The notes under the pieces are model-generated. The model had not been told where the DNA came from. It saw only the letters and a program-made list of their open reading frames with translations, and searched no databases. This document shows positions 6,316 to 52,027 of a stretch of 64,000 nucleotides of DNA, in pieces. Made by a program: the position numbers and the translations under genes. Position 1 is the first letter of the stretch. Each line of letters starts with the position of its first letter. The stretch comes from Ascidia mentula (Eukaryota; Chordata; Ascidiacea; Phlebobranchia; Ascidiidae), in assembly GCA_947561715.1 (NCBI GenBank), contig OX387198.1:4774001-4838000 (forward strand). Reading direction: 5' to 3'.

Positions 6316-9300
6316 TCAGTATCCAAATTTGGCATTGAGTGAAGTTGTCCCATCGCCGCTTTGACCTTGGGGAAACATTTGTAACGTTAAGAAGGTTATT
6401 CTACAGGGTAAATATATTTTATTGTCTATTATTTACAACTATAAAGTGGTATGGAACACTATGACTAAAGTGTAGAATAAGCCTTAAACAAAATTTTTTT
6501 AACATCTATATTTCATTGCCTCAATGTTTAGAAAGGAAGGTTCAGAAACTGTAAAACTAAACTGGTTGCCACCGTCAGGTGAAATTAGTATTTGAAAATT
6601 AATATGAAGAAATGGGACTGTTATCAGTGCAGTAACATTGGGTAAATGGACAAACTGGTAACAAAGATGTTGCCCGCAGAGGTCATTGATGTTTGACATT
6701 TGGTTAAGGCTGGTGCCAGAACGTACAGAAAAGCCACTAGATTTCCACCAAAAACCACCCCAGAATCATGGTCAGTGTTATACCTTGCGGGGGCATCCAA
6801 TCGCAGTAGTCTGGGTCGTTACTGATCGTTGTACTTTTCTGGTCTTTCGTCTGCCTCTCGCGTGGCTGTGAAGGGTTATGAGGAGGTTGGTGGCATCATA
6901 TGAAACGCTGCATATTAAATTGATGCAAATTCAAACCTTTCTTTGTCGCTTCCTTCTCTTTGCTCGTTGTTCTCCTTCCTCTGTTTCAGGTTCTTCGTCG
7001 GGCGCTTTTTCTGTGACGTCAAAGTTTTTACGTTTCAAAAACGCGATTCGTTATAAATCCACACATTTTTCGCGAGTGAACCAATTTGGACCAAATAAAA
7101 TTGTTGTGACATAAAATCCATACGCTTAAAATGTTGATTTTTTAGACTACCTTAAGCCACGACGCCTGCATTAAAAGAATTCAAAAATTATATTGGATGA
7201 AACACAATGTAATATTCAAAATCCCGTTTGCCGACGCAAATTTGAACACAAAAATCCAGAACATGTCATGGAAAATTGTGACGCTATGCGAGCCTATTTT
7301 CCTGTAAATTCATATATAGCATGACATTTGGCTTCTGGTGATTTCACAGGTCTGCCCACCAAAAGAGCAACGCTGTACAAAGCTCTATGTAACGATTTTC
7401 CATGCGTTTTTTCAAGTATCATGAACCGGTCGTTTAACTACATAACAATTGTGTCCTATGAGCTCATAGTTCGATTCTGATGACCCGAATTTAAACGAGA
7501 AGTGATTGTAATTTGCAATAAATTAAAACTAACTGATCGGGTCTATGAAATATTAATGCAAATATACGTTCAAATAAAATTCCAGAAGATAAATCGAATT
7601 TGTTCGATGTAAACCTGGTTTAACAAGGCAGTAATCACTTGTACAGGGCAATGCTTACGTAAACACACTTAATAGGCGTCATAAATTTCCAATGCCAAAA
7701 CTACAAGTAAGCCTCACAGTGTAGTTCAGGCACGGGGGAACTCATGGTCAGTTTTTTAAGTTAAAGTTGCAAATTTTCAATTGTAAACACAAATAATCTG
7801 GTTTAACATTTCTTTCTGGAATAGTTCTCTTGTTATCCACAAAAGGCCATGTTACAAATATGATATTGGCCAAATCATGAAAACATAACCTTTGTCCCCT
7901 AACTGATTTCTATTCTGCGGGCACCCATTATGGGCCCTCCATTGCTTTGGCACATATTCCCTCTATAATATATCTTACCTTCATCAGGTTCAACGCCACT
8001 AAGTTGTACACGAAGAGATTCTGGCAGGGTTGGTCCGAGTGTTCGACGTTTTGCTGATTCCTGGGATGTTTCCTCCGGTGGCGGAATTGTTACTTTTGCT
8101 TCCTCAAGCTTGTCAGGAATTTTCTCAGGTAACTAAAACGCACCACGGTTTATCAGCTTAACCCACAAGTCGCAGCCTAGGATGCTATGGAAAAGTGTTG
8201 GCAGGTTTGTTGACATTATAAGAGAAATCATTTCACGAACAATAAGCAACAAGTATTAGTGCAAATTTTGCATTTCAACTTACTAACTAATTCCGACAAA
8301 CGAATAACACAAGTGGTGTACATTTTAACCACAAAGAAGGCCTCATACTCATTTCGTATTAATCCAATGCAAGGCGCACTGGTCTATAGTTTGCGTGCTG
8401 TATGTTTTTTCAGATAATAACACACGGTTCAAGGTTTTTACCTCGGTATTTGGTTGTTGATGTATTTCAACTACAGGTTCAGGTTGGTCGATAATTTTAG
8501 GGGCGACAGGAGGTGATTTCACATTATTTTTATCTTTCGGTTCTTCGGTATCTCCAGGTTGCGTTACAGCTGCTGGAACGAACAATGTATGTTGCTACAA
8601 CCATACACACTATTCGTAAATTTACGAAACAAAATATCGCCGTTATTGTACAAAACTCGAATTAATTTCTTTTGCGTTACGTTTGTTAAGCAGAAAATAT
8701 ATGAATTTGTGTATAAGCTGCAGACAGATGGCCACTGTTTCGACCTAAAAGGTCTCATCAGTGCAGCTGGTGTGACTATCAGACGACTTTGCTGACCAAA
8801 CGGCCAAGCAAAGACTTCCACTTTGTGGTGACTATACAGTCACCGTCATCCGTTGGGCACCAAACTAGGTGCAACCTTACGGAGCAAACAAGGTGGAAAC
8901 ACTACGGCCAAGCAAGCTCAACCAATAGTGCCGTCAGGCCCCGTGTCACAATAATCATATGATAAGCAATGTGGAGCCAATAATATGAATTTGTGTATAA
9001 GCTGCAGACAGATGGCCACTGTTTCGACCTAAAAGGTCTCATCAGTGCAGCTGGTGTGACTATCAGACGACTTTGCTGACCAAACCAGCTGCACTGATGA
9101 GACCTTTTAGGTCGAAACAGTGGCCATCTGTCTGCAGCTTATACACAAATTCATATTATTGGCTCCACATTGCTTAGAAAATATATGTTTTGCAAGAAAG
9201 CCAAGGAATGTTTACTTTGTAAACATATGTTTTTATAAAGACAAGGTAACTTCTCAAACCGTAATGTAACAACTAAGCCTGGTTGTAAGGGGATCGTTTC

Positions 9301-18620: not shown

Positions 18621-18710
18621 CTTGATTTTACAATTTTCATTATTCAAACTCAGTGCATACACTCCATAGAAAAACACATTTAAACATTCTGCAACCACGC
18701 AAAACAATGA

Positions 18711-18744
18711 CAGTGGCCATCTGTCTGCAGCTTATACACAAAAC
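18711..18744 (+). repeat. Hammerhead-family relic, 3' half
   Basis: Matches the hammerhead from stem III CAG through the cleavage site and stem I TGCAGCT, and continues with the family's TATACACAAA. The CTGATGA/GAAA core that should precede it is absent, so no ribozyme is formed here. It lies just upstream of the SOCS start codon, antisense to it. Confidence 0.75.
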
Positions 18745-20776: not shown

Positions 20777-22342
20777 TCAATCACAATTCAAGGTCATAGG
20801 TGGAAACTCATTATCATCGTCAAGTGGCAAGCTTTCTGCAATATCATGAACTTCTATTGGACAAAAGAGCTTGCCTTTAGGAGATTCGTGTGAACGAAGG
20901 GACAACGCAGTGTCGCTGCTGCTGGTACTCGTGGAACTACCAGTGCTGTTCGTTCGATGTTTGTGACGCTCAACTTCTGTAAGTTGTTGAATCTTCTTTC
21001 CTTTGGTGGCATCTGCGTAAGTAGTGCCTGCTATTTCCATTTGGTTTGGAGTTGGTGTCAGGCCCATGCCATCCAAACGGTGTTGCCTGATTAATGTGCA
21101 TTCTCCACCATCTTCAGGGTCAATGTTGTAAATGTACAAATAACCATCAGCTGATGCTACCACAACACGCAGGAGTCTCTGCATTACAGTTAGTGCACAG
21201 ACGTTCTTTTGTCCAGAAAATGGAAGCTTCACAGTAGCAAATGCTCGATCTTGAGTGAGCATCACACTAACTTGGGAGGGCAAATAGTTAGAAGACGTCG
21301 TCAATACTTTGTTAAAGTATTCCATCCAAGATGAATCACTTGTGCTGGTAGTAATTGCTTTAGGAGGTGTTTTTACTTGGTGTGACTGGGTGTGTTCTAG
21401 TTTAAACAAATGGACTGTTTCCGTATTGCTGGAGGCCGCAAGTAACATAGAGTCAGCCGAGAAAGCAAGTGAGCAAATGTGGACACATCTTTTCACACCA
21501 CGGCGAAATTCAAAGAGCTTTTTTCTGTCAGCAACAGAGAAAACTCTGATTACTGTGCCTTTGTCAGATGCCGTGGCTAGTTTTGTTGCATCTCGGTTGA
21601 ATGCAAGGGCAGCAAGTGGATTGTCATGTGCGTGGATCATAGTTACAGCTTTCAAATTTGCAACATCAAAAATTTGTACTTCTCCCGTGTTTGGAGAGCC
21701 GGGGTAAGCTAGCAAGGCATTCTCGGTGTTGGCACTTAAAGCGCATATGCCCTGTGGATTAGATGGGGTATCTCGAATGGTGTGAAGCACTTTCATATCT
21801 TGTATGTTATGGATGTAAAGGCTGTCTTCAAGCAAAATCACCAAGCGAATACGGTTTAGCTTCACAGCTAAAATTGTGTTGGAGTAGCTGTGTAAACAAA
21901 ATGGACGATAAGAGTCTACCTATGTTTTGCTAAACTACTTTTCCTGCATACCTGTAATTGCATATTTCCGTGTTTTTCTTAAAGTGGCAGACTTTCAGTT
22001 TTCTTGGACTTGACAAACTAACAAGGGCAACAAGACTGCTGGAGAAAAGTCTTTCCACCAAGCATACATCCTCAATATCATCGGTGTGTATCTAAAATTC
22101 ACATAAAAATGTAATTGCAAATTCCTGTTAAGAAAAAAATCAAAAAAAAATAGTTTTTAAAAAAAGTTAGGGCATTTTAAGCAATGGCCAAAAACAAATT
22201 ATACCTCTTCAAGGTGATCCACAGAGTTTAGTCCCAAAATCCGATATCCATACCTTCCACCAACCGCCAATGATGTGAAGTCTTGGTTAAAATTTGCAAA
22301 CAGTAAATCACCAGCAAGACCATCAGATGTGGCTAAATTCAT
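20777..22342 (-). CDS. WIPI2: WIPI2, PI3P-binding autophagy WD-repeat protein
   Basis: Three exons: 22205-22342, 21952-22091, 20777-21887, giving 463 codons (462 residues; human WIPI2 about 454). It is a seven-bladed PROPPIN beta-propeller that binds PI3P on forming autophagosomes and recruits ATG16L1 for LC3 lipidation. The lipid-binding LFEFRRGV motif (FRRG at about residues 220-223) is intact. Propeller segments [19 protein letters not shown]-like [36 protein letters not shown] and [18 protein letters not shown] are in family order. The C-terminal tail after about residue 390 is Ser/Thr-rich (SSTSTSSSD) and acidic at its end ([11 protein letters not shown]), as in WIPI2 rather than WIPI1. 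The second exon ends within blade 2. Assignment to WIPI2 over WIPI1 is by this tail and overall similarity. Confidence 0.93.
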
Positions 22343-37707: not shown

Positions 37708-39009
37708 TTATGGAACTTTACCTTTGGTTGGATATTTATGTTGTAAAAACAAATGGTCATCTTTGAAAAATGAAAACATGAGTATGGGTAAGGAAATTGT
37801 GAGCATGTGCCACACTGAGTGGGCATCAAAGGTCCATAAAATAGGAGCAAAGTCAAAAACTTCAAATGTGAGAAAAATGTTGGTCAGAACAACTACATAC
37901 ATTACTTTCCAAACATATTGCTGTTCGCTATTTTGTTTGTAGAACCACAACCAAGAAGCCGTATTTAGAAGGCCAATAAATAAATTAGCCTTCATGTTGT
38001 AACCGTAATCAAACTTGTCAAAGGTTAGGTAACAAATATGAGTAATATATAGACCAGCCAACACATTTCCTGCGACCCACCGGATTCGGGCTTGATTTTG
38101 TTGTTCTGCGCTGTAAGACCATCTATGGATTGAGACATAGAATGAATAAACAACCAGGGACGTTGCACAAAAATAGTCCAAAATTTCTGTCCATACAAAA
38201 TCCCTTGAGTGGTAAACAGATGACCAAATCCAAGCATTTACCCCGACTACTGCTTGCAAGACAGCAATATTAAACATTGGTGCAGTTGCTGGAACAGCAC
38301 CCAAATAATTTCTTAGACCAATTATTGTGGTTACCGCATTTAAAATCGAAAATACAACTGAAGCAGGCTCTTGCATTCCAAGCACCCGAACAAATGGCCA
38401 TTTGCCATGAAACTGTGGAAGTGGCACTTTTTCCTTTTGAAAAACATCAACAGTCCTCCACATACATTCGTACCTGTGAGAAAAATGCCTTTTGAAAAAA
38501 GTCATGTTGAAGCAGGTTGCATGGGTGGACCATAGCCAACTGTAATATCGAATGATCATTTGCTGTTGAAATTTGTCGAAGTTACAAATTTTTTAGTCAT
38601 ATGGGAAATTGCTGTGTTACAACAAAACAAATGGAATAGGACAAAATGTCAAAAAACATTACAGGAATCAGTTAACTGATGGATCATTTTCGAATCAGAC
38701 AAAATAATTAATTTATATTCCTATATACATATAAAATTTTAAATTCCTACTTGCACTCCTCTTGGCAATTCCAACCTAATGCTCTTAAGTATATTGGTTG
38801 ATCCGTAGGGTAATCAATACCACTGCAGTTTTTCTTTTGACATGGTTGCAGGCAGTTCTGCAAACAAAAATCTTCTTTTTTAACATTTCGCTGAGTAAAA
38901 TCTTTCTATGTAAAAATTCAATTACCAAATATGCTCCACATGTGTTACCAAGTGATCCAAGACTGCAGGCAACTTGAACAAGAAGATAAATGGCCACCAA
39001 CCAGAACAT
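37708..39009 (-). CDS. PGAP3: PGAP3, GPI-anchor remodelling enzyme
   Basis: Removes the unsaturated sn-2 fatty acid from GPI anchors in the Golgi/ER so that it can be replaced by a saturated one. Three exons: 38926-39009, 38751-38857, 37708-38473, giving 319 codons (318 residues; human 320). Exon 1 is a signal peptide (MFWLVAIYLLVQVACS). Exon 2 carries the cysteine-rich lumenal segment NCLQPCQKKNCSG and ALGWNCQEEC. Exon 3 begins YECMW and holds FHGKWPFVR plus seven hydrophobic segments. It also carries the CREST-superfamily residues VYHSRD, DYFCATS, FDYGYN and DAHSVWHMLTI, which supply the presumed metal-binding His/Asp. It ends without a clear ER-retrieval signal. Phase is preserved at both junctions. 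Confidence 0.95.
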
Positions 39010-39994
39010 TTGCTGATGTTGTACTAAGCAGCAAAACATAAAAAAAAACTCTTCAGAGAGGCAAAACATCAAATTAGTAGTGAGAATATAAATGAGCACC
39101 AAAAACAAACACAGTTACACTGCATAATAGAGAAAACGTCAAAAAATTGACTACAGGAATCAGCCTTTGCAAGTCGGTGACTTTTATCGTGTTTATAACG
39201 TTTAGCAAATTTTCAAACTGTTGCATTGCTATTTGATGGCAATCTCCTATAAAAATTGCACTAACACTATAATAAAGTAGTCAGTTTTCATGTTTGGTAA
39301 ACGGAGACCTGGCGCAGAATTGTCAAACTATTAACAAATGTTTTTCAACATATGGAAATGGAAATGGCCACATGAGCATTACGACTTCAAAAGCTTTGCT
39401 GTTTACTAAATCGTTCTGGTTCACTGCGTACTCCTGTCTACTCAACCAGAAAGGGGTTCGTTTGCATGTTGTTGTGATTTGTGACCCACAGACGTAACTT
39501 TGATATTTTCGACATAACGTGGAACGACGAACAGTCAGAATCAACGGATTGTCACCACAAAATAAAGGTTTTTGACAACTTTCTACGTACTTGCTTGTGA
39601 AATATTAAAAATAAATTAACGTTTTTGTAGTTTCATGTAGCCTATGTGTGCACATTCCAAGTTTGCTGCATTATATGAAAATTGTTGTGCAATTTGGTGG
39701 AGACGATAGATTTGAAACAATGAAGATTACCAAAAATTCCACCATTAACTGTGTAATGTAAGTGTATATTTCAAAAGATAACCATTTAACTTTCATGCAA
39801 AGAGTTGGGCATATTTATATTGACCTGTACTTTTTTTAGGTGATATTGAACTTGTGCCTATTAGGATATTGAACCTATTGGTTATGTACACAATTTCCTT
39901 CTTCTGTTATGGTAATTAAAAACAACATATGTCTGCTTGATTAAAATGTTGCAACTCGACATTTTCTGTTTTTCAGGTAAACTATAACATTCCA
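39010..39994. other. Divergent promoter region of PGAP3 and SZT2
   Basis: About 1 kb. The right part contains the SZT2 5' leader: a donor (AAT/GTAAGTG) at 39757-39764 and an acceptor (TTTTCAG) ending at 39976 define a 219-bp leader intron. Nothing else recognisable is seen. Confidence 0.55.
39720..39980 (+). other. Spliced upstream ORF in the SZT2 leader
   Basis: An ATG at 39720 opens a 13-codon frame (MKITKNSTINCVM). If the intron 39758-39976 is removed, the stop is formed at the exon junction (AT plus GTAA), 15 bases before the SZT2 ATG at 39995. Such a short upstream frame could damp translation. This is inference from predicted splicing only. Confidence 0.35.
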
Positions 39995-42900
39995 ATGGAT
40001 TCTGGGATAAGTAAAGCTGAGGAGGTTGTGATCCACTTAAAAAAAGAATTTCGGGTTTCGAGAAACATTCGTTTAAAGTGGTATCTAGACCACCTTAACT
40101 CACCAATTACTGTTTCTGCCAATGAAGAAACATCTTCCGCCCCAAAAGGACTAGAGGTGATTTCTGTGTTTGACAAAAATGGAGAACCTACAGAGAAGCA
40201 GTGCATGTTAACAACAGACACAAGATTGTCCTTTGTCTCAAGCGGATACAAGTTTGTGTTTGCCCTCGACCTCTCTTCGTCTGTGCTGCGTGTTGATACC
40301 TTCCAGCAATGCGTTATGGTCGAGGCTGTACTTCTAAACTTGGAAGAATGTCTGATGTCCCTAATTCAACCTTTCATAGTGCCTGGATATGCAGGCATGA
40401 TGCAGCCAACAATATATCTAACCATTTTTGCTCAATGGAATGGCACATCCAGTGGCAGCACAAATCAAAAAGTTATCATACAAGGGTGCAAGCTGAACAG
40501 TGCGTCAATACAACACATTATACCATTAGTAAAGAAGGCCATTTATTCAATTAATTACACAGCTGAAGGCCTTATCCATAGTGAAAATGTTAGGCCACAA
40601 GCACATGACAATACAATTATTTCTATCATAGAAACTGCCATACTAGCACTGCAGCTACTGCCACCCAACACCAGTTCAGGACTTGTGGTGTTTACCGATG
40701 GTGTAATAGGAGAGCCAGTTCCCATTGCTCTTGGTGACATTTTAAGCAAATGTCAAAACTTGACAACTGCCTGTTCTTTTGTGCATGTGAACCCATCAAG
40801 CTTTCCCCTGTGCAATTTTGGGTGTGTGTCTCATACAGAACTGATGCAATTTATTGCCCAGTCTACCAAAGGAAAGTACATCAACACTTTCCAGATTCCT
40901 TCCGCAAAGCCAAATTCATTAAACAACTACCAGAAACTGTTACTACTTTGGTCGTTTCAAGTTGACCAATATTTTGTTGAGTGTATGCAGGGAACTTTCT
41001 CCTCACCTTCACTTCAAGGCACTTGCTCTGTTTTTGAACTTCGCAACATCAACCCTGACCACGTTCAGACACCGGCCCTTTTAGTGCGAAAACACAGTGA
41101 GAAGAACTTACGAGTTGCCTTGCCAACTGTTGTTGGTTCACGTCTACGCGAAGGATATTGTATCAAAAAAGTTGCATTCCCCAAAAGTACAATAGAAGTT
41201 CATTTGGTGTTGTGTTGGTGGAAAAACCATACAACTGTGGAGTATAGAGTTATTGCCCCCTGGCCCTTAAGTAAAAAGTCTTGTAAGATTGAAGTGTATG
41301 TCGCGGGGACATATGAATTTCTCTATGATATCAGTCGAGGACAGTTGGTGGATAGGTGGACCAGATCTAGAAAACAGGTCACCCAAAGATTTGGAATGTT
41401 TATCCGTAATTTACAGCAAGCAGATCACATGTTGCAAAATTTGGCTTCTTTTAATCACGACCCAGTGTACTGTACAGTATCAGACGTTTTGGCCCAAGCT
41501 CAGAGTCTTTTCTATCTGCCGCCAAATTCCAACCAGTTTGTGCTTTCAGCACAGGCAGAAAATACGCCAAATGCATTTTCATCTTATTGGAAACCTGTTC
41601 TTTCTTTGGATGTGTCAATTTGGCAAAAGTGGTTACATATCCATTATGTGCATTTACTTTTGAAACATGACAGTCCTCTACCTAAACACCTGCATAATCC
41701 TACAAGTGATGGTAGGTATCACCCTGTTCAATGTCAAGTAGCATACACACAACTTCTGGCTCTACTGAGAGAATGGTGTACGTTTGTTCTACTTGAAGGT
41801 CACACCTATGTCAAGTTCATATTTGAAGGTGGCAACAAGGAATTACCGGCGTCCTTTTTCCTTGTCAGGGTATGGAGTAAGTCGGCAGCTGTGGTTTTAA
41901 AAGTGGCCTTTTTCATTGGCGTGCCCGGAGAAACCCGAAAGTATTACGTTGATGATTTAAGAGAAAAGGCTGCCTCGATGGGAACAACCAGTGCTGCTAC
42001 AAGTGTGAAAAGAGTGCGACATTCCAGTTCCAGGGTTTCACCAAGCATTCGTTCCAAACATCTTTCCGACAAACGAGTGACAGTCTTTCTTATGAGTAAA
42101 CCACTGGATAGACTGTTAGTCCAGCAAAACCAAGTACCACGCGACTACCTTCACATTCCACAGAACTTCAAATTTCTGCCACAGCAACACAATATGATAG
42201 GTGAGAACTCAAAAAGAATTCATGACTTACAGGGGTACATGATTCGGAAACGCTATGTGTGGTCAGTCACCAGTATCAAAGACACGCCAATATCAATGGA
42301 AGTTGCAGTTGGCCTTCCCAACCTACTTATGAAGTTAAGAATGGCCGAAGGATACAATATTGCTCATTCTGCACACGGAGTGCTGACACTTGCTCGGGAA
42401 TTTCCACTTGCCTCCATGTTTAATGTACCAGGTGACGATAACGACGCAACTCACAATTGCCTCGTGCAGTGCATCCTGTTTCCACCAAAAATAAAAATGT
42501 CCGATGTATCTGTGAGCACGACTGGCTCGGATATTGAGGAAGATGAAGATGTAGAGGAGAACAACAGCACGACAAAGGAAATCCTTTTGGCAATGGAGAT
42601 TTGGACAGAACCTCAGTATGGCATTGTAAGCCAACCACAGTATTCATCCCGTTTTAGCTCAAGTAGCAATGGTAGCAGTAGTAGTATGAAGTATAGTGCA
42701 AGTGAACCACTATCTGGCGTCCCGTATTATGAAGGGCTTCAGTGTCACCAAATAGCACCGGTTGTCTCACAGAAGGACACTGCCTGGATCAGCAATGTTA
42801 TCACACTAGAGCAGTTACAACTTATGTGCAAGTCAGACATTATTTCCACTTCATTTCCTCAAGTGGGCGACGCATGGCCTAACGTAGCGAAGGATTCGCC

Positions 42901-45900
42901 ACATGATATGTCGATTAGCAATGAAACGCTTGTTTCCGATGACGTTAGTGACAAAGGTTCCTTTTCTAAGGTGGACTCCACAGAACATGAAAGTGGGAAT
43001 GTACCAGGCTTTGAAATAAATAAGCATATTACAGCCTTTCCATGCATGTTTAATTTCATTGGACTGCTTGATCAATCCCCCAGAAGCAAACTGCTGTTCA
43101 TGACACTACAGCAGAAATTCCCAAATGAAAGCGGTCCAAATGAGGCCCTTTTTTGTAGTATGCATCAGTCCATAGAAAAAGTGTGTGATTGTGAAGTTGA
43201 TTTGTCAACATCAGACCAACGTGCCATTACCAATTTAATTTTGTCATCAGAGTCTTTGCATGATGATACGGCACAAGACAATAATAGCAATATTTCAAAG
43301 CAATGGTGTTGTTATTTGAAGGCTGGTGATGATGGCCAAGTCATGATTGTCATACTTCCAGCAACATACTCAGACTTCAGGAATATTTTTAGTGTATCAT
43401 TTGATGCAGAAACACAGGAACACAGCACAAGCTCAAGTGCTGCAACCTTAACTGACACTCAGGTCTTTCATGAGAATTTGCCTGCAAAGACATTTTCAGC
43501 TCCAAATAGCCCTGCAACGCACAACGATGACAAAACTGTCGAAAACGGGAGTCTTCACAGAATTGCACGTAGAATTTCAATAAAGCGGCAAACATCTAGC
43601 GGTGAGCCTCATCGTTTGGAGCAGAGAGAAGCTGAGAAGTCGATAGCACAAAGAACGTTTTCTGTTTATGTGTATAACTGCTCCATGAACATGGTGGTCA
43701 GTTCAGCACTGCAAAGTGTTAGCAGCCAACGTAACATCAAATGGCAGGAGTCGGTACAGGACCATCGCTTCTACACCTATGACCATGCGATGAATGATGT
43801 GATGTACCAAAATCTAACACCAACAAAAGAGTATACTGATATTGTAAGAATGTATTCAACATCACACAGTGTGGACGGCACTGATGAAGTATTTCCTCTT
43901 GTCTCGCATGAGAATGAGCAAGTAAACCACGCTTGCATGCAGATTGTGGACGCCTACAGGAGCGGCTTTGTTTCCGGTGTGTTTGAGGGAGTTCAAAACG
44001 AAACTGAGCAAGTTGTGAGCACCGATGACCTTCAGATTGTAACCGACTCCATCTGTCAGGAGTATGTGGAGGAAATTGACATCACAGACTTCATGCTTCT
44101 TAATTCTCCCCAAGTGGCTGAATTTAAGAACCAACATTTAACACCCTTCCTTCTAACTGATTTTAATCAACTACCTGATGAAGCTGACATAGAGCTTAAT
44201 GACATTGAAGACATGTGCAAAGATGGAGGTGTACCAAAAAAACCAGCAACATCTGAAGCTCAGACTCATGCGTTACCCATCGAGCACTCAACCTTAACAA
44301 CTGAGACACTACCCAAGGAAACTGAGGAAGGCATAGAAACCAACATGAAAAGTAGCAATGTTGGTGGCATAGTCAGTGGTGGTGTTCGAATCCTACCTCA
44401 GAAAGAAAGTGCCTTCACTTCAGTGAGACAGCGACACCGAGTGTCGGAATGTGAAAAACACTTGCCTGATAGCAGCAGTTCGGAAGAGGAGAATGAGTTT
44501 GATAACAGGAAGCGGAAAGCACAGTCCCATCACCGGGAAAGGAAAATTACGCACACTCTACCGGTGAAGCAGGTTGACATGAAAAAGAACATGAGTGGGT
44601 CTATGCAGAGTGGTTGGAAGAATTTGCCGATGTTATCGATTTCCATTCTAGCTAAGTCGCATTCTAGACACTTGTCGGGTTCTGTCGAGCAACTTGAAAA
44701 GTATTTTAACAGTGTCTTGAAAAAGTATTGCCGGTCTGTCCCACAGTTGCCTGATGTGTACTATGCTGTAAATCACAACAGTAATGAACTTGCTTCAGCA
44801 ACTCAAACAACCTTCAGTCACTATGACAGTGACACTGATGCTGTGCAATTTGCAAGCAAACAAAGTGCTTCGGACGCAACAGACTCTATGTATGATAAGG
44901 CAGGGTCAATTCATGCAGATGATAATGCATCATCTTCTTCTGCTATTGAAACATACATGCCTCCCTTGTTTTTGTGCATGACTTGCACTGTAAGAGACAA
45001 AGCAAGTTCAAACCATGGCACTTTGTCAGTTAACGGTCTGCCAACTGACCTTGCAACCGTGCTTGATGCATTTGAAAATCCATGTCAGGAGGTCAACTTG
45101 TCAGACCTTAAGATTACATTAGATTTAATTTGGCTTTTCCTTCCTAACCACCTTGACAATGGCAACATACCAAAATCTGACCCAAGCGCTCGTCTGTCAT
45201 ACAAGGAAGGCGATGTTAATGTTTCTGACTTCCCGTCCGAGTGCTTATTGTGTGTTGCAGGGGTAAAAAAGAGCATATCTTGGCTGTTGGAAGATGAAAT
45301 TATGTCTTCGCTGAGGACTTGCGAACCGATCAACCAACAAACCTTGGAAAAGGTGACCAAGCACATTGAGCAAAGGAAATCGAGCAACTGTAAAATGGAA
45401 ACTGTTCCACTGCAGTACATATTTGGCCTAGAAAGTAGCAAGCCACTGTTTTTTGCTGAGTTTGAGAGGTTCCGCTTTGAAAAGTACAAGCTGAAAAGGG
45501 AGGAGAACTTTTACTACGTCAGCGTAGAGAGAGGAAACGCTTCATTTTTACCAATTAAGTTCACGACTGGAGTGGATGAAGTTATAAATGGAACAGATGT
45601 GGAACTGATTAAAGACGATTTAATTCCAAACCATGGAATGAAGACACCACAATCAACTACCACTGGGCAATACTGGTCGACACCAATTACAAATACATTT
45701 CCTGTTATTTCCGCAAAACCTGACCAAGTGGCCGATACAAAACATGGCAGACGTAGTTGTGTGTCACTTTATCAAAGAGACCAGGATACAGCTACTGGAA
45801 ATAAACTACAAAAAGCGGCCTCATCGGTGGAGCTCTCCAGTTGTGGTTTTCCTGCTAAAAGGTCGTCTTCAGTTTCAAATGTTTTGGAAGAAGCTACTGT

Positions 45901-48900
45901 AAACCCAACCAAGTCAGGAAAACTGTCACAGAACAAGCCTGTGCCTTTGCATATCAACCCATCCATGAGCTCTGGCCACCAGCCATTGCATGCCTCGTTA
46001 AGCTGCGGAAAAGAGCATTTCTCCCCTTTGTTTGTGCCCAAGGGCAGCACAATGTCGATGCCGGGAACTCCAGCAAACACAGAAAGTGTTTATTTTAACT
46101 TCGGAGCTGCCACCAACAAACTTGGAATCGATGCGGCTTCATTTCCAGGCCCCAGCAATTCGAGGGACCCCATCTTCAGTCCGATGTCAGATACGTCCCC
46201 AAGACATTATAGTCAAACAAGCCTGATGACCTCTGGTTATGAAGGAGAGGTCAGCGACACGGAGGAGGAAGACTATTACTTACAACTGCTCCAGGAAGGA
46301 AACAGCCAACTTCCAAACTTCTGGCTGATTGTGCAAATAAATGATGACTGTGCAAACTTATACTTTCATCGCCGTGGAAGCGCTCGAGTGATGAGGGCAA
46401 TGAAAATGGAACAAAATTCTGTGATCCACAGGATCATCTCGAACCTGCATAACGCTTGTCGTGCAGTCAACCAAACTCTGTTGCTCAAGAAATTGCATGA
46501 AAGCCACATGTGTCATTCGTTGCTGGTGGAAGAGCCTGCAGAGGACATATGGAAACGTGAAGATTATTCATCATCCTCTGTCTACCAAGCAACATCCATC
46601 GACGATTACAATCTTGCAGATGAGACGTTGAATCAAGGTGAATATCTGGCAGCTAACATGAACTTCAGACCTGGATACTTTGAGTGCCAGTGTGTGTTGC
46701 AACAATCCATTGCCTTGCATCACCGCATTGCCGGCACAGTAACTGGATCTGCCTTGGCCTCCACAGCACCCACTGCAATGAGCACTGTGAAGTCTTTCCT
46801 CAAAAACTTTGCTGTTGTCAATCAGAAACACATGTTCGTATTTCAAATGGAGGATGGCACTATATTTTATTGCCGCATGAATACGGAAATAAGAAAAAGC
46901 GAGCCAAACAGTCGTAGATCTTCACTGGTTACCCCAAGTTCTGGATTGGAGCAGATTCCACAGTCAGTTAGGGAATCGAAAGAGAGTTTGCTCTCTGTGA
47001 GCGACAGTGATCCTAAGCTGTGCATTACTTGGTACGGAGTGCATGATCTCACCTGTCAGCACCTTTCCGAACTGACTAAAGTAAAGCAGAGTGTCGAGCG
47101 GAAACTAGATGATGCTGTTTTGGAATACATTACTCTTATGTTAACTCGCAATAAGATGTTCAAGCTTACCCCTGCTGACGTATCGCTTATACAGCCCAGA
47201 GTGGAAGGGCTGCAGTCAACCATTGTTCCCAAAGACCCTGATGATACTTTGACATTCCATGTATCTGGAGCTCTTGTAAATAGTCTAACTAATGCCAGGT
47301 TCTTGTACTATTTGCATCAAAACATCCTTCAGTTTGTAATTACACCACGGTATGCAGAGCCCAACAATACTGCAGGATTTTTCTTGCCATACCGGACTGT
47401 TCAGCAAGATGATATACCAATGGATAGAAGTGGCAACAAAGTTCCCGGCAGCATTTATGTTTACAATGGCTCTTCAGAGAAGGGTCGCACAGGCCAAGGT
47501 TTGGCTTGTGTTTTTCTGGACCTGACTACATGCAAATCTAGTGACAACTTGATAAACTCCGACATGCAGTGCAGCAGTGATGTTTTTAAATCCAAATGCC
47601 AGGTTGTTCAGTGTATGGAAGGATGTGAGACAGTTGATAGCAACCAGGCAATTGTGCAGTTTTATGTATGGACCAGAGGTATTGTCAAACTGGATATTTT
47701 GGGTCAAAAATTATCTTCCGCAATTCATAGCACCTTATGTGATTTGATTCTTGAGTACTTGTTAATGGCACCTATGTTGCAAACCACCACTCAAAAAACA
47801 GATGCCATGCGTAGTCTGTCGTTTCCCTCTTCATCTGAAACAACACAGAGTAATATGTTTAGTATGTTCCAAACCAAGGTAGCTCCAAAGCCAAGCAAAC
47901 CAACTGTGGTTGAAACTGTCAGTAAGCATTTATCAGAAAAATACTACACAATCGTACCGGAGTGGCTAAGTTATATGATAACGCAGGCATGCCCGTCTGT
48001 TTCAGCATTAACACTGAAAGTTAACAGCAGATCAGTCAACTCCAATTGCACTCGGAACTTAGCACAAATCTTGGAAAACAGTCTGCTAGACTCAGATGAA
48101 GTGTTTCTGTTTGAAAAATCAGCTGTGGAGTCGGTTTGGAAGGTAGAAACAGGTTCAAACAGCCATGATGATACTCCTGGTCATTACCCGGAAATGCTGG
48201 TGATAAGCAAGAACTTACATCTGTGGAAGAAAAGTATTGGTGGCCCTTGCGAAATGCCTCGACCCAATTTGAGCACCATGCAAAAATTTGTTGCCCATGA
48301 TGTTTCACACAAGCCAGACTTAAGTCCATGTCCCCAACACTCTTTGATATCATCATCTTCTTTTATTTGTCGACAGCATTTTGCATACGTTTCGTCCAAG
48401 TCCTTAACATCTATTACTGTGTATTTATACAACATCACTGCAGAAAAGACGACATCATTCCACAAAAAAATGCAGCACTGTGTGGCTTTTCACAATGCCA
48501 GACACAGCATGATGCAAGGCAACACTCTTCAAAAGTTGGGATTATTTAAACACAGAACAAAGAATTCTGACATCTCCAATTACACTGTCGATATTTTGAC
48601 CAGACACACCACATTACCCCCACCTGAAAAACTGAAACAAAAACCAACATATGCAGACCGTTATTTCGACGAACACTACTTGGATTGCCATCCACACATA
48701 GAACTGAGGGAATCAGATGACTTTATGAAAGACAAAGTGTCACATGTTGGCCACCAGTGCATTTCTCTGGCAAAGCAAAAGTACAAAAGAAGTGAAGAAA
48801 AAATGCATTTGAAAAATTTGTTTGCAAAGTTTCACAAAGTCAGGTCCTCCAGCTTCGTGGTATCCAGCACCACCCTCTCTATACTAATGTCCCATGCTAA

Positions 48901-50596
48901 ACTGATCTTTACCCAATCCACTCCCATTGTACTGAGTTGCATGGCACAGAAAAAGTTTCTGACAATTTATAGCAGACACAAAAGAAAAACCCGCACCACT
49001 TCGGGGTCAAAAGCGGAAAAACTGACGAGAAGAAGTTCATTTCTGGAAAGCTACCGCCGAAAGTCAGGTGACTCGCTAACTAAGGCAACTGGAGACAATG
49101 AAGAAGAACACGGACAGCCTGGTTATAATGAAGATCAACTTGCCAGCTGCTTCTACCAGTTCTACTTTGAACATTGCAAGGGTTTTGTTCAATTGCAAGT
49201 CGACACATCAAGGGTGGCCAAATCATTGTCTACTAACCCACATACCGAGTATATGTACAGAGCTATGGCTGGGGGCATGGTGTTATTGACACTTACGTTT
49301 CATGACGACTTGTTTGATGTTAAACTGTATGGGATCGATTTGTCTCATATCAGCACGGAAAGTTACAGAGCCAACAAATCAAAGTTAAACCTGAACTTTT
49401 TAAACAATTGTGAAAGATTTAAGGAGTTTATAAGTGTCCATACCATAGGCCTGGACCTGCAGCTCAAAGAAGTGCAACTATTTATAAGTGAAAAAAGATG
49501 TGCATTGTTGCCTGGATGCTCGTTAAGTGGAATACTACAGGCATTAGTGGATTGCTATGAACCAGTTGTACATCCATTGTCGCATCATATTTTACGTGGA
49601 AATGTAACCATACCTTGTCCCAATGTGTCGCACAAAGAACTCTTTGGCTTCATAACAAGTCATTCCCATGCATTGGGTTTAGAAATTTTCTCCTCTAATT
49701 GCAGCTTGCTTGGCAACCAGCAGGTAATGCTTTGTTGCACGACGTCTTTTTCAGATGAGCATATCAGTGACTGTTGTGCTCAAAGTCACCAAAGAAAAAA
49801 CATCTGCATTTTATTTACAACATCTGCTTCCAGTAACACTAGAGCTTTAGTCATGGAGTATTACATTTTGTTCACAGACAAACCAATACAGCAAGCAATA
49901 TCTCCGAAAGCTCCGACAAGTAAAAGTAAACATCCACGCAGATTCTCCGAGGTGGGTGACTTTGGTATTGCGCAGAGTTTGGCCATGCTGCAAAGGGAAA
50001 AGTTAGACTTGAGCTCTGTGATATTCAACCGCCTCGATACTGGAGAAAGTCATCAAGCGTCGTGCTTTGTGAAGTGCGAGCAAACGCGCACTGAGAAATG
50101 CCTTGCTGAAATTGGAACGAGCGCGGAGACTGAGTGTTACCGACACCAACTGTGGAGCAGACTTGGGCAAATGTGCCGAGAAAAAAGTTCAACTAGTCCA
50201 TTGTCAACTGAAGAATTTAACAAACTTGTAAACTTGATGCATGCAACACCAGCATCAGAACTTGACGATAGAGCACTAAAGCTTGTAAATACCAAAAACA
50301 CTGTAAAATATGGAAGCAGACTTCAAAAAAGACTACTAAGGGTATTTGCAAAATCCTCCGCCTCATTTATCTCTGGTGATAACAATGTCCAGACAGTATG
50401 TGTTATAAATCACGAAGGATTACATTGTATGGTGGCGGTGCATGTAAATATGGAAAAAAAGAGTGTTTCCATTCAAATGGTGCAATCAGTTGGAACGCCT
50501 GACATGCCAGAAGACCTAACATACTTTGTGTCAAGGAAATTATTGAAGGAAGTTTTAAATGAACTTTACCTTGACTTTTGGTCTCTTTGGTGGTAA
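39995..50596 (+). CDS. SZT2: SZT2, KICSTOR complex subunit (intronless)
   Basis: One open frame of 3533 codons; human SZT2 has about 3430 residues. SZT2 is the largest subunit of KICSTOR, which holds the GATOR1 complex on lysosomes so that mTORC1 is switched off when amino acids are scarce. The N-terminus matches the family (HLKKEFRVSRNIRLKWYLDHL in pieces: SRNIRLKWYLDHL, then KFVFALDLSSSVLRVD), as do YAGMMQPTIYLTIFAQWNG and GLVVFTDGV of the amino-terminal region. Low-complexity serine runs lie at about residues 885-905 and 1490-1500, presumably linkers between folded regions. The ATG at 39995 is the first in frame: a TAA lies upstream in the predicted spliced leader. No frameshift or stop interrupts 10.6 kb, so the gene is under selection. 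Absence of any coding intron is odd beside neighbours with an intron every 100-200 bp. Confidence 0.93.
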   Translation: MDSGISKAEEVVIHLKKEFRVSRNIRLKWYLDHLNSPITVSANEETSSAPKGLEVISVFDKNGEPTEKQCMLTTDTRLSFVSSGYKFVFALDLSSSVLRVDTFQQCVMVEAVLLNLEECLMSLIQPFIVPGYAGMMQPTIYLTIFAQWNGTSSGSTNQKVIIQGCKLNSASIQHIIPLVKKAIYSINYTAEGLIHSENVRPQAHDNTIISIIETAILALQLLPPNTSSGLVVFTDGVIGEPVPIALGDILSKCQNLTTACSFVHVNPSSFPLCNFGCVSHTELMQFIAQSTKGKYINTFQIPSAKPNSLNNYQKLLLLWSFQVDQYFVECMQGTFSSPSLQGTCSVFELRNINPDHVQTPALLVRKHSEKNLRVALPTVVGSRLREGYCIKKVAFPKSTIEVHLVLCWWKNHTTVEYRVIAPWPLSKKSCKIEVYVAGTYEFLYDISRGQLVDRWTRSRKQVTQRFGMFIRNLQQADHMLQNLASFNHDPVYCTVSDVLAQAQSLFYLPPNSNQFVLSAQAENTPNAFSSYWKPVLSLDVSIWQKWLHIHYVHLLLKHDSPLPKHLHNPTSDGRYHPVQCQVAYTQLLALLREWCTFVLLEGHTYVKFIFEGGNKELPASFFLVRVWSKSAAVVLKVAFFIGVPGETRKYYVDDLREKAASMGTTSAATSVKRVRHSSSRVSPSIRSKHLSDKRVTVFLMSKPLDRLLVQQNQVPRDYLHIPQNFKFLPQQHNMIGENSKRIHDLQGYMIRKRYVWSVTSIKDTPISMEVAVGLPNLLMKLRMAEGYNIAHSAHGVLTLAREFPLASMFNVPGDDNDATHNCLVQCILFPPKIKMSDVSVSTTGSDIEEDEDVEENNSTTKEILLAMEIWTEPQYGIVSQPQYSSRFSSSSNGSSSSMKYSASEPLSGVPYYEGLQCHQIAPVVSQKDTAWISNVITLEQLQLMCKSDIISTSFPQVGDAWPNVAKDSPHDMSISNETLVSDDVSDKGSFSKVDSTEHESGNVPGFEINKHITAFPCMFNFIGLLDQSPRSKLLFMTLQQKFPNESGPNEALFCSMHQSIEKVCDCEVDLSTSDQRAITNLILSSESLHDDTAQDNNSNISKQWCCYLKAGDDGQVMIVILPATYSDFRNIFSVSFDAETQEHSTSSSAATLTDTQVFHENLPAKTFSAPNSPATHNDDKTVENGSLHRIARRISIKRQTSSGEPHRLEQREAEKSIAQRTFSVYVYNCSMNMVVSSALQSVSSQRNIKWQESVQDHRFYTYDHAMNDVMYQNLTPTKEYTDIVRMYSTSHSVDGTDEVFPLVSHENEQVNHACMQIVDAYRSGFVSGVFEGVQNETEQVVSTDDLQIVTDSICQEYVEEIDITDFMLLNSPQVAEFKNQHLTPFLLTDFNQLPDEADIELNDIEDMCKDGGVPKKPATSEAQTHALPIEHSTLTTETLPKETEEGIETNMKSSNVGGIVSGGVRILPQKESAFTSVRQRHRVSECEKHLPDSSSSEEENEFDNRKRKAQSHHRERKITHTLPVKQVDMKKNMSGSMQSGWKNLPMLSISILAKSHSRHLSGSVEQLEKYFNSVLKKYCRSVPQLPDVYYAVNHNSNELASATQTTFSHYDSDTDAVQFASKQSASDATDSMYDKAGSIHADDNASSSSAIETYMPPLFLCMTCTVRDKASSNHGTLSVNGLPTDLATVLDAFENPCQEVNLSDLKITLDLIWLFLPNHLDNGNIPKSDPSARLSYKEGDVNVSDFPSECLLCVAGVKKSISWLLEDEIMSSLRTCEPINQQTLEKVTKHIEQRKSSNCKMETVPLQYIFGLESSKPLFFAEFERFRFEKYKLKREENFYYVSVERGNASFLPIKFTTGVDEVINGTDVELIKDDLIPNHGMKTPQSTTTGQYWSTPITNTFPVISAKPDQVADTKHGRRSCVSLYQRDQDTATGNKLQKAASSVELSSCGFPAKRSSSVSNVLEEATVNPTKSGKLSQNKPVPLHINPSMSSGHQPLHASLSCGKEHFSPLFVPKGSTMSMPGTPANTESVYFNFGAATNKLGIDAASFPGPSNSRDPIFSPMSDTSPRHYSQTSLMTSGYEGEVSDTEEEDYYLQLLQEGNSQLPNFWLIVQINDDCANLYFHRRGSARVMRAMKMEQNSVIHRIISNLHNACRAVNQTLLLKKLHESHMCHSLLVEEPAEDIWKREDYSSSSVYQATSIDDYNLADETLNQGEYLAANMNFRPGYFECQCVLQQSIALHHRIAGTVTGSALASTAPTAMSTVKSFLKNFAVVNQKHMFVFQMEDGTIFYCRMNTEIRKSEPNSRRSSLVTPSSGLEQIPQSVRESKESLLSVSDSDPKLCITWYGVHDLTCQHLSELTKVKQSVERKLDDAVLEYITLMLTRNKMFKLTPADVSLIQPRVEGLQSTIVPKDPDDTLTFHVSGALVNSLTNARFLYYLHQNILQFVITPRYAEPNNTAGFFLPYRTVQQDDIPMDRSGNKVPGSIYVYNGSSEKGRTGQGLACVFLDLTTCKSSDNLINSDMQCSSDVFKSKCQVVQCMEGCETVDSNQAIVQFYVWTRGIVKLDILGQKLSSAIHSTLCDLILEYLLMAPMLQTTTQKTDAMRSLSFPSSSETTQSNMFSMFQTKVAPKPSKPTVVETVSKHLSEKYYTIVPEWLSYMITQACPSVSALTLKVNSRSVNSNCTRNLAQILENSLLDSDEVFLFEKSAVESVWKVETGSNSHDDTPGHYPEMLVISKNLHLWKKSIGGPCEMPRPNLSTMQKFVAHDVSHKPDLSPCPQHSLISSSSFICRQHFAYVSSKSLTSITVYLYNITAEKTTSFHKKMQHCVAFHNARHSMMQGNTLQKLGLFKHRTKNSDISNYTVDILTRHTTLPPPEKLKQKPTYADRYFDEHYLDCHPHIELRESDDFMKDKVSHVGHQCISLAKQKYKRSEEKMHLKNLFAKFHKVRSSSFVVSSTTLSILMSHAKLIFTQSTPIVLSCMAQKKFLTIYSRHKRKTRTTSGSKAEKLTRRSSFLESYRRKSGDSLTKATGDNEEEHGQPGYNEDQLASCFYQFYFEHCKGFVQLQVDTSRVAKSLSTNPHTEYMYRAMAGGMVLLTLTFHDDLFDVKLYGIDLSHISTESYRANKSKLNLNFLNNCERFKEFISVHTIGLDLQLKEVQLFISEKRCALLPGCSLSGILQALVDCYEPVVHPLSHHILRGNVTIPCPNVSHKELFGFITSHSHALGLEIFSSNCSLLGNQQVMLCCTTSFSDEHISDCCAQSHQRKNICILFTTSASSNTRALVMEYYILFTDKPIQQAISPKAPTSKSKHPRRFSEVGDFGIAQSLAMLQREKLDLSSVIFNRLDTGESHQASCFVKCEQTRTEKCLAEIGTSAETECYRHQLWSRLGQMCREKSSTSPLSTEEFNKLVNLMHATPASELDDRALKLVNTKNTVKYGSRLQKRLLRVFAKSSASFISGDNNVQTVCVINHEGLHCMVAVHVNMEKKSVSIQMVQSVGTPDMPEDLTYFVSRKLLKEVLNELYLDFWSLWW

Positions 50597-51235: not shown

Positions 51236-52027
51236 TTATAACTTTTGGGAAAATGCACTTCTTTCACTTCCCGCTGCTGGAATATTTCTTTCATCCCAAA
51301 CCACCACACCATCACATGCACAAAACCTCTTAGCATTTTGTAGCAACCCAGCTGAGCGAGCAACTATTCCACAGGCAAGCCCTCGACCAGAGCTGCCATC
51401 CACAGCAGAAGAATGTGTGGAACCCCTTCCATGGTCATCAGCTCCTTCATGTATAACCATTGATCTTCCGATAATATCCCAAACTTTGACATGATCGTCG
51501 AGGAATCGAAAAACTGACCTTCCGTTTTGGTTAACAGTGACGTTGCCAAGGTCTCCGACATGTCGTTCCATGTCATCTCTTCCACCATGGCGCATTCCCT
51601 TCGGGTTAAAGTGTCCACCGCAGTTTACGCAACCATTAGAAAGGTCACCAAATTCATGAATGTTTATTCCATGTCGACCTGGTGCAAGACCATCTAAGGT
51701 TCCTTCGATCAAACATTTCTGATTGTCAAGCTGTAACATTCTAACAATTCCCTTAATATTGGGACCTGAAATTTCAGCCACAGCTGCTCCTAGATGCTTT
51801 CCACCAATGCTAGACCCTTGCCCCATCAGAGCAGCCCGTTTTCCAGTACTTTCAATTATGTCCTGAACTTCATTGAAAGGTTGGTTGGTCTGGACCAGAA
51901 CAAGTTGCTTTTCAATATCCACAGACAGGACTTTTACCGATTTTCCTTGCAGGGCTTTTGTTACTGAATCGGAACAAGCGTTGCAAGTCATCTCCACAGC
52001 AAACTCCATTTGCACGTCGACACTCAT
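51236..52027 (-). CDS. CCS: CCS, copper chaperone for superoxide dismutase
   Basis: Delivers copper to Cu/Zn-SOD1 and forms its disulfide, in cytosol and mitochondrial intermembrane space. A single exon of 263 residues (human 274). Domain 1 is an Atx1-like copper domain with MTCNAC (Cys15, Cys18). Domain 2 is SOD-like: GAAVAEISGPNIKGIVR, CLIEGTLDGLAPG, HEFGDLSNGC, GGHFNP, HGG, GDLGN, RSMVIHEGADD and ACGIVARSAG. Domain 3 carries the essential CxC (CAC, Cys236/Cys238) in KRFCACDGVVVWDER. In the copper-site segment the first His of the usual H-x-H is Asn122 (GINIHEF; human CCS has HVH), so the SOD-like domain probably holds no copper itself. Overall length, domain order and both Cys motifs make the call firm. 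Confidence 0.96.
   Translation of the reverse strand: MSVDVQMEFAVEMTCNACSDSVTKALQGKSVKVLSVDIEKQLVLVQTNQPFNEVQDIIESTGKRAALMGQGSSIGGKHLGAAVAEISGPNIKGIVRMLQLDNQKCLIEGTLDGLAPGRHGINIHEFGDLSNGCVNCGGHFNPKGMRHGGRDDMERHVGDLGNVTVNQNGRSVFRFLDDHVKVWDIIGRSMVIHEGADDHGRGSTHSSAVDGSSGRGLACGIVARSAGLLQNAKRFCACDGVVVWDERNIPAAGSERSAFSQKL

What the first reader, a model, noticed from the sequence alone, without database searches (positions are those of the whole stretch)
8704..9175. Young retrozyme-like element: tandem plus inverted hammerhead ribozymes in a kanadaptin intron
Seen: three identical 53-nt motifs that satisfy the type I hammerhead consensus at every core position (CTGATGA, GAAA, U-C cleavage site), with 7-bp stem I, 4-bp stem II and 3-bp stem III. 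Two are in tandem exactly 284 bp apart and one lies in a perfect 92-bp inverted arm; the whole is bounded by a 12-bp duplication. Known: animal retrozymes are small non-autonomous retroelements whose hammerheads cut multimeric RNA into monomers that circularise. Inferred: this is such an element, inserted recently, with a 284-nt circular RNA as its replicating form. I know of no named element with this sequence.
Basis: partly seen in the sequence, partly recalled or inferred. Interest (0 to 1): 0.95.

Follow-up and report, generated by a model that had tools for sequence, protein, structure and literature searches.

The report
Two-headed hammerhead retrozyme insertion
A tiny non-coding jumping element with self-cutting RNA motifs sits in an animal gene's intron, and its relatives across the genome share a strict two-ended insertion pattern suggesting that one small RNA is copied outward from both sides of the same cut in the chromosome.

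Summary
Window 8704-9175 is a 472-bp insertion between exact 12-bp duplications, with three type I hammerhead motifs: two in tandem 284 nt apart on the minus strand, one inverted. A strict hammerhead pattern occurs 2464 times in this 196-Mb animal genome, against 2 for the reversed pattern.

The inverted arm is the main finding. Of 40 loci retrieved with the 284-bp unit, 31 are head-to-head with both ends readable. In 31 of 31, one outer end starts 13-19 nt after the ribozyme cleavage site and the other 40-49 nt after it. Twelve more retrozyme insertions and 12 autonomous Penelope-like (PLE) insertions in the same genome follow the same one-short-one-long rule: 55 of 55. Both arms share locus-private variants, and units within an insertion look like copies of one monomer.

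Best explanation: a PLE-type enzyme nicks both strands, and each 3' end primes reverse transcription on the same retrozyme RNA, probably a 284-nt circle, at one of two adjacent start sites. The cDNAs join in the middle, usually through microhomology. PLE head-to-head structures and a tail on one end were already described. Ribozyme activity, the circle and the helper were not tested.

The parts
8692..8703 (.). left copy of the 12-bp target-site duplication AGAAAATATATG
9176..9187 (.). right copy of the 12-bp target-site duplication; GTTT, the commonest outside motif of the family, follows after one overlapping G (ATATGTTTT)
8704..9085 (-). left arm: sense retrozyme sequence on the minus strand, one full 284-nt unit plus parts
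   Evidence: locus L048 is this site
8704..8722 (-). 'short' outer end, 19 nt after the ribozyme cleavage site
9081..9175 (+). right arm: inverted retrozyme sequence
9133..9175 (+). 'long' outer end, 43 nt after the ribozyme cleavage site
9081..9085 (.). junction of the two arms: 5-nt overlap (microhomology); arms end at different unit positions (206 and 233)
8716..8768 (-). type I hammerhead motif 1; predicted cleavage between 8723 and 8722
   Evidence: activity not tested
9000..9052 (-). type I hammerhead motif 2; predicted cleavage between 9007 and 9006; lies wholly in the inverted repeat
   Evidence: activity not tested
9087..9139 (+). type I hammerhead motif 3 in the inverted arm; predicted cleavage between 9132 and 9133
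   Evidence: activity not tested
8723..9006 (-). cleavage-to-cleavage 284-nt monomer, GC 47.5%, no ATG-started reading frame over 46 codons even when read round the circle

Best explanation
A young animal retrozyme (non-coding, type I hammerhead, 284-nt unit) inserted by Penelope-like (PLE) machinery through two-ended target-primed reverse transcription. Proposed steps: retrozyme RNA is cut by its hammerheads into 284-nt monomers that become circles (inferred). A dimeric GIY-YIG/reverse transcriptase nicks both strands about 12 nt apart at a site resembling AAAC-N12-GTTT, leaving 3' overhangs (inferred from duplications and flanks). Each 3' end primes a cDNA on the SAME RNA at one of two neighbouring start sites, one ~16 nt and one ~44 nt after the hammerhead cut, each used once (pairing shown; same complex inferred). 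Each cDNA runs upstream, often round the unit more than once. The two ends join head-to-head, usually through 1-9 nt of microhomology.
For: Of 40 loci, 31 are head-to-head with both ends readable, and 31 of 31 pair a short end (13-19) with a long one (40-49). An exact repeat of 9 bp or more joins left and right flanks in 30 of 31, versus 11 of 930 mismatched pairs. Seven further retrozyme insertions of several subfamilies (segmental duplicates L083 and L088 dropped) and five more obey it too. Autonomous PLEs of this genome with RVT_1 and GIY-YIG domains obey it: 7 of 7 in an 801-aa family, 4 of 4 and 1 of 1 in two others. Total 55 of 55. GIY-YIG neighbours of opposite strand within 6 kb are head-to-head in 17 of 17; hammerheads within 1.5 kb in 9 of 9 among the 100 places listed of 2464. 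Target flanks favour GTTT on both sides (T at +8/+9/+10 from the duplication centre: 25, 25, 21 of 31 and 21, 22, 22 of 31). Junction overlap is 1-9 nt in 22 of 31. The two arms stop at unrelated unit positions (within 10 nt in only 2 of 31). Opposite arms differ by 1.07%, same-arm units by 1.03%, different loci by 2.31%; permutation 0 of 20000. Variants seen in one locus only (L019: two; L020; L042) are present in both arms. In the multi-unit loci, 32 variant positions are in every unit, 69 in one unit only and 5 in a subset. Independent biochemistry: a purified lizard PLE protein cuts and extends both strands and starts internally at two adjacent sites (PMC11167929).
Against: No RNA, enzyme or cleavage data. 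Rfam models do not reach their cut-offs. In 9 of the 40 loci the structure is not two-headed with readable ends: 6 one-headed, 3 partial or rearranged. In the later set of 10, two could not be read and three were one-headed. Own opposite arm is the (tied) closest in only 8 of 20 loci. L012 and L017 show larger arm differences (5.2%, 5.8%), from a deletion in one unit and misaligned bases at a palindromic junction. Arms of equal sequence could also come from sister RNAs of one source or from gene conversion. No PLE sharing the retrozyme's start region was found in the loci held, and the 801-aa family's flanks (n=7) show no clear GTTT. The lizard enzyme showed no strand difference in start site (PMC11167929).
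Confidence: 0.75

Rival explanations
1. Self-priming on an antisense template, proposed for Penelope in 2013: the cDNA folds back at its end and copies itself, giving head-to-head repeats.
For: Proposed by Arkhipova et al. for Adineta vaga Penelope because palindromes lie at the inverted junctions (PMC3846280, passages). A palindromic junction does occur here: L017 (both arms at unit position 167) and possibly L127 and L129.
Against: Fold-back predicts arms that mirror each other from the junction. Here they stop within 10 nt of each other in only 2 of 31, differ up to about twelve-fold in length (L020: 129 and 1630 nt), and it gives no reason for one short plus one long end in 55 of 55.
Confidence: 0.06
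2. Two-ended target-primed reverse transcription as in the best explanation, but each end copies a separate RNA molecule (sister linear multimers or circles), with the short/long pairing imposed by the protein dimer or by sequential priming rather than by one shared RNA.
For: Sister RNAs from one source array would carry the same variants, so the arm identity does not exclude it. Three arms end exactly at the cleavage position 1 (L018, L046; L132; post-hoc P 0.002), as if that RNA ended there, while the partner arm passes that point.
Against: Exclusive use of each site once is most simply explained by one start region holding both primers. Locus-private variants are in both arms.
Confidence: 0.25
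3. A LINE-type element mobilises the retrozyme, and the inversions are ordinary LINE twin priming.
For: Twin priming is known for L1 (recalled; titles and abstracts and 35 listings).
Against: LINE twin priming would be a minority outcome without fixed internal start sites at both ends (recalled). The retrozyme signature instead matches the PLEs of this genome end for end. LINEs of this genome were not surveyed.
Confidence: 0.06
4. A DNA transposon or MITE with terminal inverted repeats, or a rearranged satellite, with hammerheads as passengers.
For: The outer ends are inverted repeats and there is a target-site duplication.
Against: The inside is not fixed: number of units, arm lengths and junction differ from copy to copy, and the two ends are not the same sequence but start at two sites. 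Transposase genes were not searched for.
Confidence: 0.02

Closest known systems
Metazoan non-LTR retrozymes with type I hammerheads (Cervera and de la Pena 2020, PMC7229834: abstract, part 1 of the Results, and passages)
   Same: Small non-coding unit (theirs ~170-400 nt, here 284), type I hammerhead, tandem copies, GC below 50%, duplications longer than 4 bp, PLEs in the same genome.
   Different: The word 'inverted' does not occur in that paper's text; here head-to-head copies are the majority (31 of 40). They name PLEs only as 'a strong candidate' for mobilisation; here the retrozyme and PLE insertion signatures match in one genome.
Endonuclease-containing Penelope elements (Arkhipova et al. 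2013, PMC3846280: passages)
   Same: Head-to-head inverted pLTRs, short duplications (8-10 bp there), a 31-bp tail present at one of the inverted ends.
   Different: Those encode the RT/endonuclease; the retrozyme is non-coding. There the tail is called optional and inversion is ascribed to self-priming; here one tail per two-ended insertion is exceptionless in 55 cases and the junctions argue against self-priming.
Poseidon PAc from Anolis in vitro (Frangieh et al. 2024, PMC11167929: main text read, parts 1-2 of 4)
   Same: Both strands cut and extended; reverse transcription starts internally at two adjacent sites; the tail is the sequence between them.
   Different: Ends were not scored pairwise per insertion in the text read, so coupling of the two sites was not described; hammerhead cleavage was not needed in vitro, and no circular template was used.
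Plant LTR retrozymes (PMC4918200, search listing only; described in passages of PMC7761336)
   Same: Non-autonomous, hammerhead, circular RNA.
   Different: Type III hammerheads in LTRs with primer-binding site and polypurine tract, 4-bp duplications.

Membership tests
Metazoan (non-LTR) retrozyme | type I hammerhead with intact catalytic core and cleavage site | tested here: met
   core and stems by inspection; 2464 genome matches versus 2 for the reversed pattern; Rfam only below cut-off
Metazoan (non-LTR) retrozyme | tandem units of about 150-450 bp, GC below 50% | tested here: met
   284 nt, GC 47.5%, up to five full units in one arm
Metazoan (non-LTR) retrozyme | no protein coding | tested here: met
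   longest ATG frame 46 codons read round the circle
Metazoan (non-LTR) retrozyme | target-site duplication longer than 4 bp | tested here: met
   mode 12 bp, 31 loci
Metazoan (non-LTR) retrozyme | no LTR, tRNA primer-binding site or polypurine tract | not tested
   no search was made for PBS or PPT
Metazoan (non-LTR) retrozyme | self-cleaving, abundant small circular RNA | not testable with these tools
   no RNA data; indirect support from unit homogeneity
Penelope-like element | RT plus GIY-YIG open reading frame | tested here: not met
   the window element is non-coding; separate PLEs with both domains exist in the genome
Penelope-like element (insertion mode only) | head-to-head inverted copies, tail at one end, short duplication | tested here: met
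   compared with PMC3846280
Penelope-like element (insertion mode only) | shares start-region sequence with an autonomous PLE of the genome | tested here: not met
   start-region motifs searched in the PLE loci held: hits only in retrozyme remnants, plus two stray short matches; only part of the PLEs was read

The most novel reading that the evidence does not exclude
Penelope-type integration is a coupled two-polymerase reaction on one RNA: the two reverse transcriptases of a dimer, each fed by one broken target strand, must start at the two different sites of a single start region, and retrozymes exploit this with a 284-nt RNA circle that both polymerases copy, so each insertion is two counter-running readings of one circle.
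Probability: 0.5. Interest if true: 0.87.

Novelty: new variant of a known kind. Interest (0 to 1): 0.78.

Why it matters
Two open questions become testable. First, what moves animal retrozymes: PLEs were named as a strong candidate in 2020 (PMC7229834); here both show the same unusual ends in one genome. Second, how PLEs integrate: their inverted copies and occasional tails have lacked an agreed mechanism. A rule of one short and one long end in 55 of 55 insertions, with both arms carrying the same private variants, predicts a coupled two-ended reaction on one RNA that can be tested with purified protein and barcoded circles. Because the retrozyme is only 284 nt, non-coding and abundant, it is a convenient natural reporter of that reaction.

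Tried and rejected
Rfam: no family at gathering score in the window; lax searches gave mostly foldback artefacts (Wolbachia sRNA, miRNA models matching the long inverted repeat) and sub-threshold hammerheads. RF00163 over the genome was uninformative because its controls were silent. Start-region hairpin: the window family folds into a hairpin whose feet are near the two start sites (z about -2), but two other retrozyme subfamilies and three PLE families do not stand out, so I make no claim of a conserved hairpin. Helper PLE: not identified. Fold-back/self-priming, LINE twin priming and MITE readings were weighed and disfavoured (see rivals). Exact pattern of the hammerhead in viral contigs: 0 matches. 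Species: not identified; COX1 on contig C79 reads AGA/AGG as Ser at conserved places, which I take, from recall, as the invertebrate mitochondrial code. Covariation of hammerhead stems was not computed; the stems hardly vary among the copies read.

Rows dropped before the 55-count: L083 and L088 (segmental duplicates), L076 and L059 (duplicates of L067 and L060), L123 and the first site of L095 (no clear duplication; L123 looks short plus long), L127 and L129 (rearranged), and the one-headed or partial loci listed in the report. In one search the script's counts for L081, L087 and L088 are 11 too large because it matched an earlier TGTA/TGTC; I corrected by eye. One-headed loci use both sites: short in L010, L026, L028, L038, L100, L125; long in L041, L047, L124, L126.

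Literature limits: only CC-licensed PMC papers are held; PMC4209133 and PMC5785218, which deal with PLE hammerheads, are not held. Statements that a pairing rule or head-to-head retrozymes were not found in print rest on searches.

Full report
WHAT IS THERE. Window 8704-9175 is an insertion of 472 bp between two exact copies of AGAAAATATATG (8692-8703, 9176-9187). It consists of a left arm (8704-9085) that carries retrozyme sense sequence on the minus strand and a right arm (9081-9175) that carries it on the plus strand. The arms overlap by 5 nt at the junction. Three identical hammerhead motifs are present: 8716-8768 (-), 9000-9052 (-) and 9087-9139 (+). Read on the minus strand the first two define a 284-nt cleavage-to-cleavage monomer, GC 47.5%, without an ATG-started frame over 46 codons.

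IS IT MORE THAN CHANCE. The strict pattern CTGATGAG-N6-20-CGAAAC occurs 1217 times on one strand and 1247 on the other in the 195.8-Mb genome; the same pattern read backwards occurs 0 and 2 times. In the window it occurs three times against none in 100 shuffles (pattern without the last C). Rfam scores the motif only below its own thresholds, and simple energy folding does not produce the full hammerhead; both count against a purely model-based identification. The identification rests on the conserved core, the cleavage triplet, the three stems and the unit structure.

THE FAMILY. The 284-bp unit was searched in the window's own genome. The tool scored 40 of 2153 candidates, which I grouped into 40 loci and fetched (L009-L048). 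They were chosen by similarity alone. Mapping the unit on them shows antisense units on the left and sense units on the right in most. In 31 of 40 both outer ends could be read from a cleavage site outward. Six are one-headed: L010, L026, L028, L038, L041, L047, of which L010, L028, L038 and L041 show a duplication by eye. Three are partial or rearranged: L015, L022, L044.

THE END RULE. For the 31 loci, the distance from the cleavage site to the duplication is 13-19 nt at one end and 40-49 nt at the other, without exception. The search for the duplication did not presuppose this. The duplication is real: an exact match of 9 bp or more between own left and right flanks in 30 of 31, versus 11 of 930 pairs of flanks from different loci; its usual length is 12. 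Other subfamilies of the same genome obey the rule: seven distinct insertions, of 20 regions fetched, eight of which had been picked because hammerheads lie there in opposite orientation; one more, the second site of L095. As a further check, ten regions were taken from the pattern list without regard to structure: four two-ended insertions with duplications (L128, L130, L131, L132) all obey, L123 looks the same but lacks a clear duplication, three are one-headed, two are rearranged.

THE SAME RULE IN PENELOPE-LIKE ELEMENTS. The genome holds at least 121 GIY-YIG matches (150 of 382 candidates scored). Long frames of 801, 885 and 811 aa carry GIY-YIG and RT matches (in the 811-aa frame the RT match is below Pfam's cut-off). 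Of neighbouring GIY-YIG matches on opposite strands within 6 kb, 17 of 17 are in head-to-head order. Both ends were read for seven insertions of the 801-aa family, four of another family and one of a third. In 12 of 12 one end is at the short site and the other 30-43 nt further. Together with the 43 retrozyme insertions this makes 55 of 55. If the two ends chose their site independently at even odds, this would have a probability of about 3e-17; insertions are treated as independent, duplicates having been dropped. One-headed loci use both sites (short 6, long 4), so neither site is simply rare.

TARGET. Centred on the duplication, T is enriched at positions +8, +9 and +10 on both sides (25, 25, 21 of 31 and 21, 22, 22 of 31) and G at +7 (17 and 11 of 31). 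The target is therefore roughly AAAC-N12-GTTT, a palindrome, cut with 12-nt 3' overhangs: a dimeric endonuclease is the natural inference. The 801-aa PLE family, with only seven sites, shows no clear GTTT, so it may not be the helper.

THE JUNCTION. The two arms overlap by 1-9 nt in 22 of 31, are blunt in 2, have a gap in 6, and in one (L017) overlap by 21 nt in a palindrome. The arms stop at unit positions that differ by more than 10 nt in 29 of 31. Fold-back copying would make them mirror each other.

ONE RNA. Units in opposite arms of an insertion differ by 1.07%, units in the same arm by 1.03%, units of different loci by 2.31%. Shuffling right arms among 20 loci never reached the observed similarity (0 of 20000), although the own arm is the closest, or tied, in only 8 of 20. 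Variants found in a single locus of the 40 occur in both its arms: L019 positions 164 and 209, L020 position 239, L042 position 37. Within multi-unit loci 32 variant positions are in all units, 69 in one unit (16 of them a single deletion in L012) and 5 in a subset; four of those 5 are gap placements in short runs. This is what copying one circular monomer several times, from both target ends, would leave. A long linear transcript of an old array should carry over subset patterns. Gene conversion or sister RNAs are not excluded.

FINER HINTS. Three arms end exactly at the cleavage position 1 (L018, L046, L132) of 72 arms counted; chance 0.002, but noticed after the fact. Three end exactly at position 18, beside the short start site (L030, L039, L045). 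They might mark a cleaved RNA end and a collision with the other cDNA. I give them little weight.

MECHANISM. Shown by sequence: two-ended structure, site pairing, duplications, microhomology, arm identity. Known from others: a lizard PLE protein cuts and extends both strands and initiates internally at two adjacent sites that bound the tail (PMC11167929, main text read in parts 1-2 of 4), without a difference between strands. Inferred: that the same enzyme class inserts the retrozyme, that one dimer holds one RNA with both sites, and that the RNA is a circle. An oddity of this copy: motif 2 lies wholly in the inverted repeat, so in the kanadaptin pre-mRNA, which is read in the sense direction of motifs 1 and 2, it may be masked by pairing with the other arm; this is inference.

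KNOWN AND NEW. Retrozymes of animals, their circles and the suggestion that PLEs move them are known (PMC7229834). Head-to-head inverted ends and a tail at one of them are known for Penelope (PMC3846280, passages). In the papers I could search I found no report of head-to-head retrozymes nor of the one-site-per-end rule; the library holds only openly licensed papers, and two PLE-hammerhead papers were not held. I therefore rate it a new variant of a known kind: a member of the metazoan retrozymes that works, in its insertion, like a Penelope-like element without being one.

Noticed in passing
window 18710-18742: A 33-nt retrozyme fragment, 100% identical over unit positions 269-284 and 1-17, ending at the short start site, with CAAAACAAT on both sides by eye: apparently a minimal one-headed insertion.
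   Followed up: partly
window 56768-56921: A diverged head-to-head retrozyme remnant (78-86% identity) in the same window, so the neighbourhood has been hit at least three times.
   Followed up: partly
genome C67:6134028-6146916 (L061-L065, L079): A PLE locus with five GIY-YIG matches, two on the minus and three on the plus strand, at 2870-bp spacing within each arm: a tandem plus inverted array of long PLE frames.
   Followed up: partly
L090, L091, L092, L084: One hammerhead subfamily (stem-loop ACCTGACAGGT) recurs with nearly the same downstream flank, as if carried inside a larger dispersed repeat.
   Followed up: no
L127, L129: Retrozyme insertions with a fold-back of internal sequence at one end instead of a start site, possibly true snap-back products.
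   Followed up: no
window 39941-50596 (+): An uninterrupted 3551-aa reading frame in a genome whose other genes here look intron-rich; not identified.
   Followed up: no
window 20777-21919, 37708-38592, 51236-52042 (-): Exons with PROPPIN, Per1-like, and Cu/Zn superoxide dismutase plus heavy-metal domain matches.
   Followed up: no
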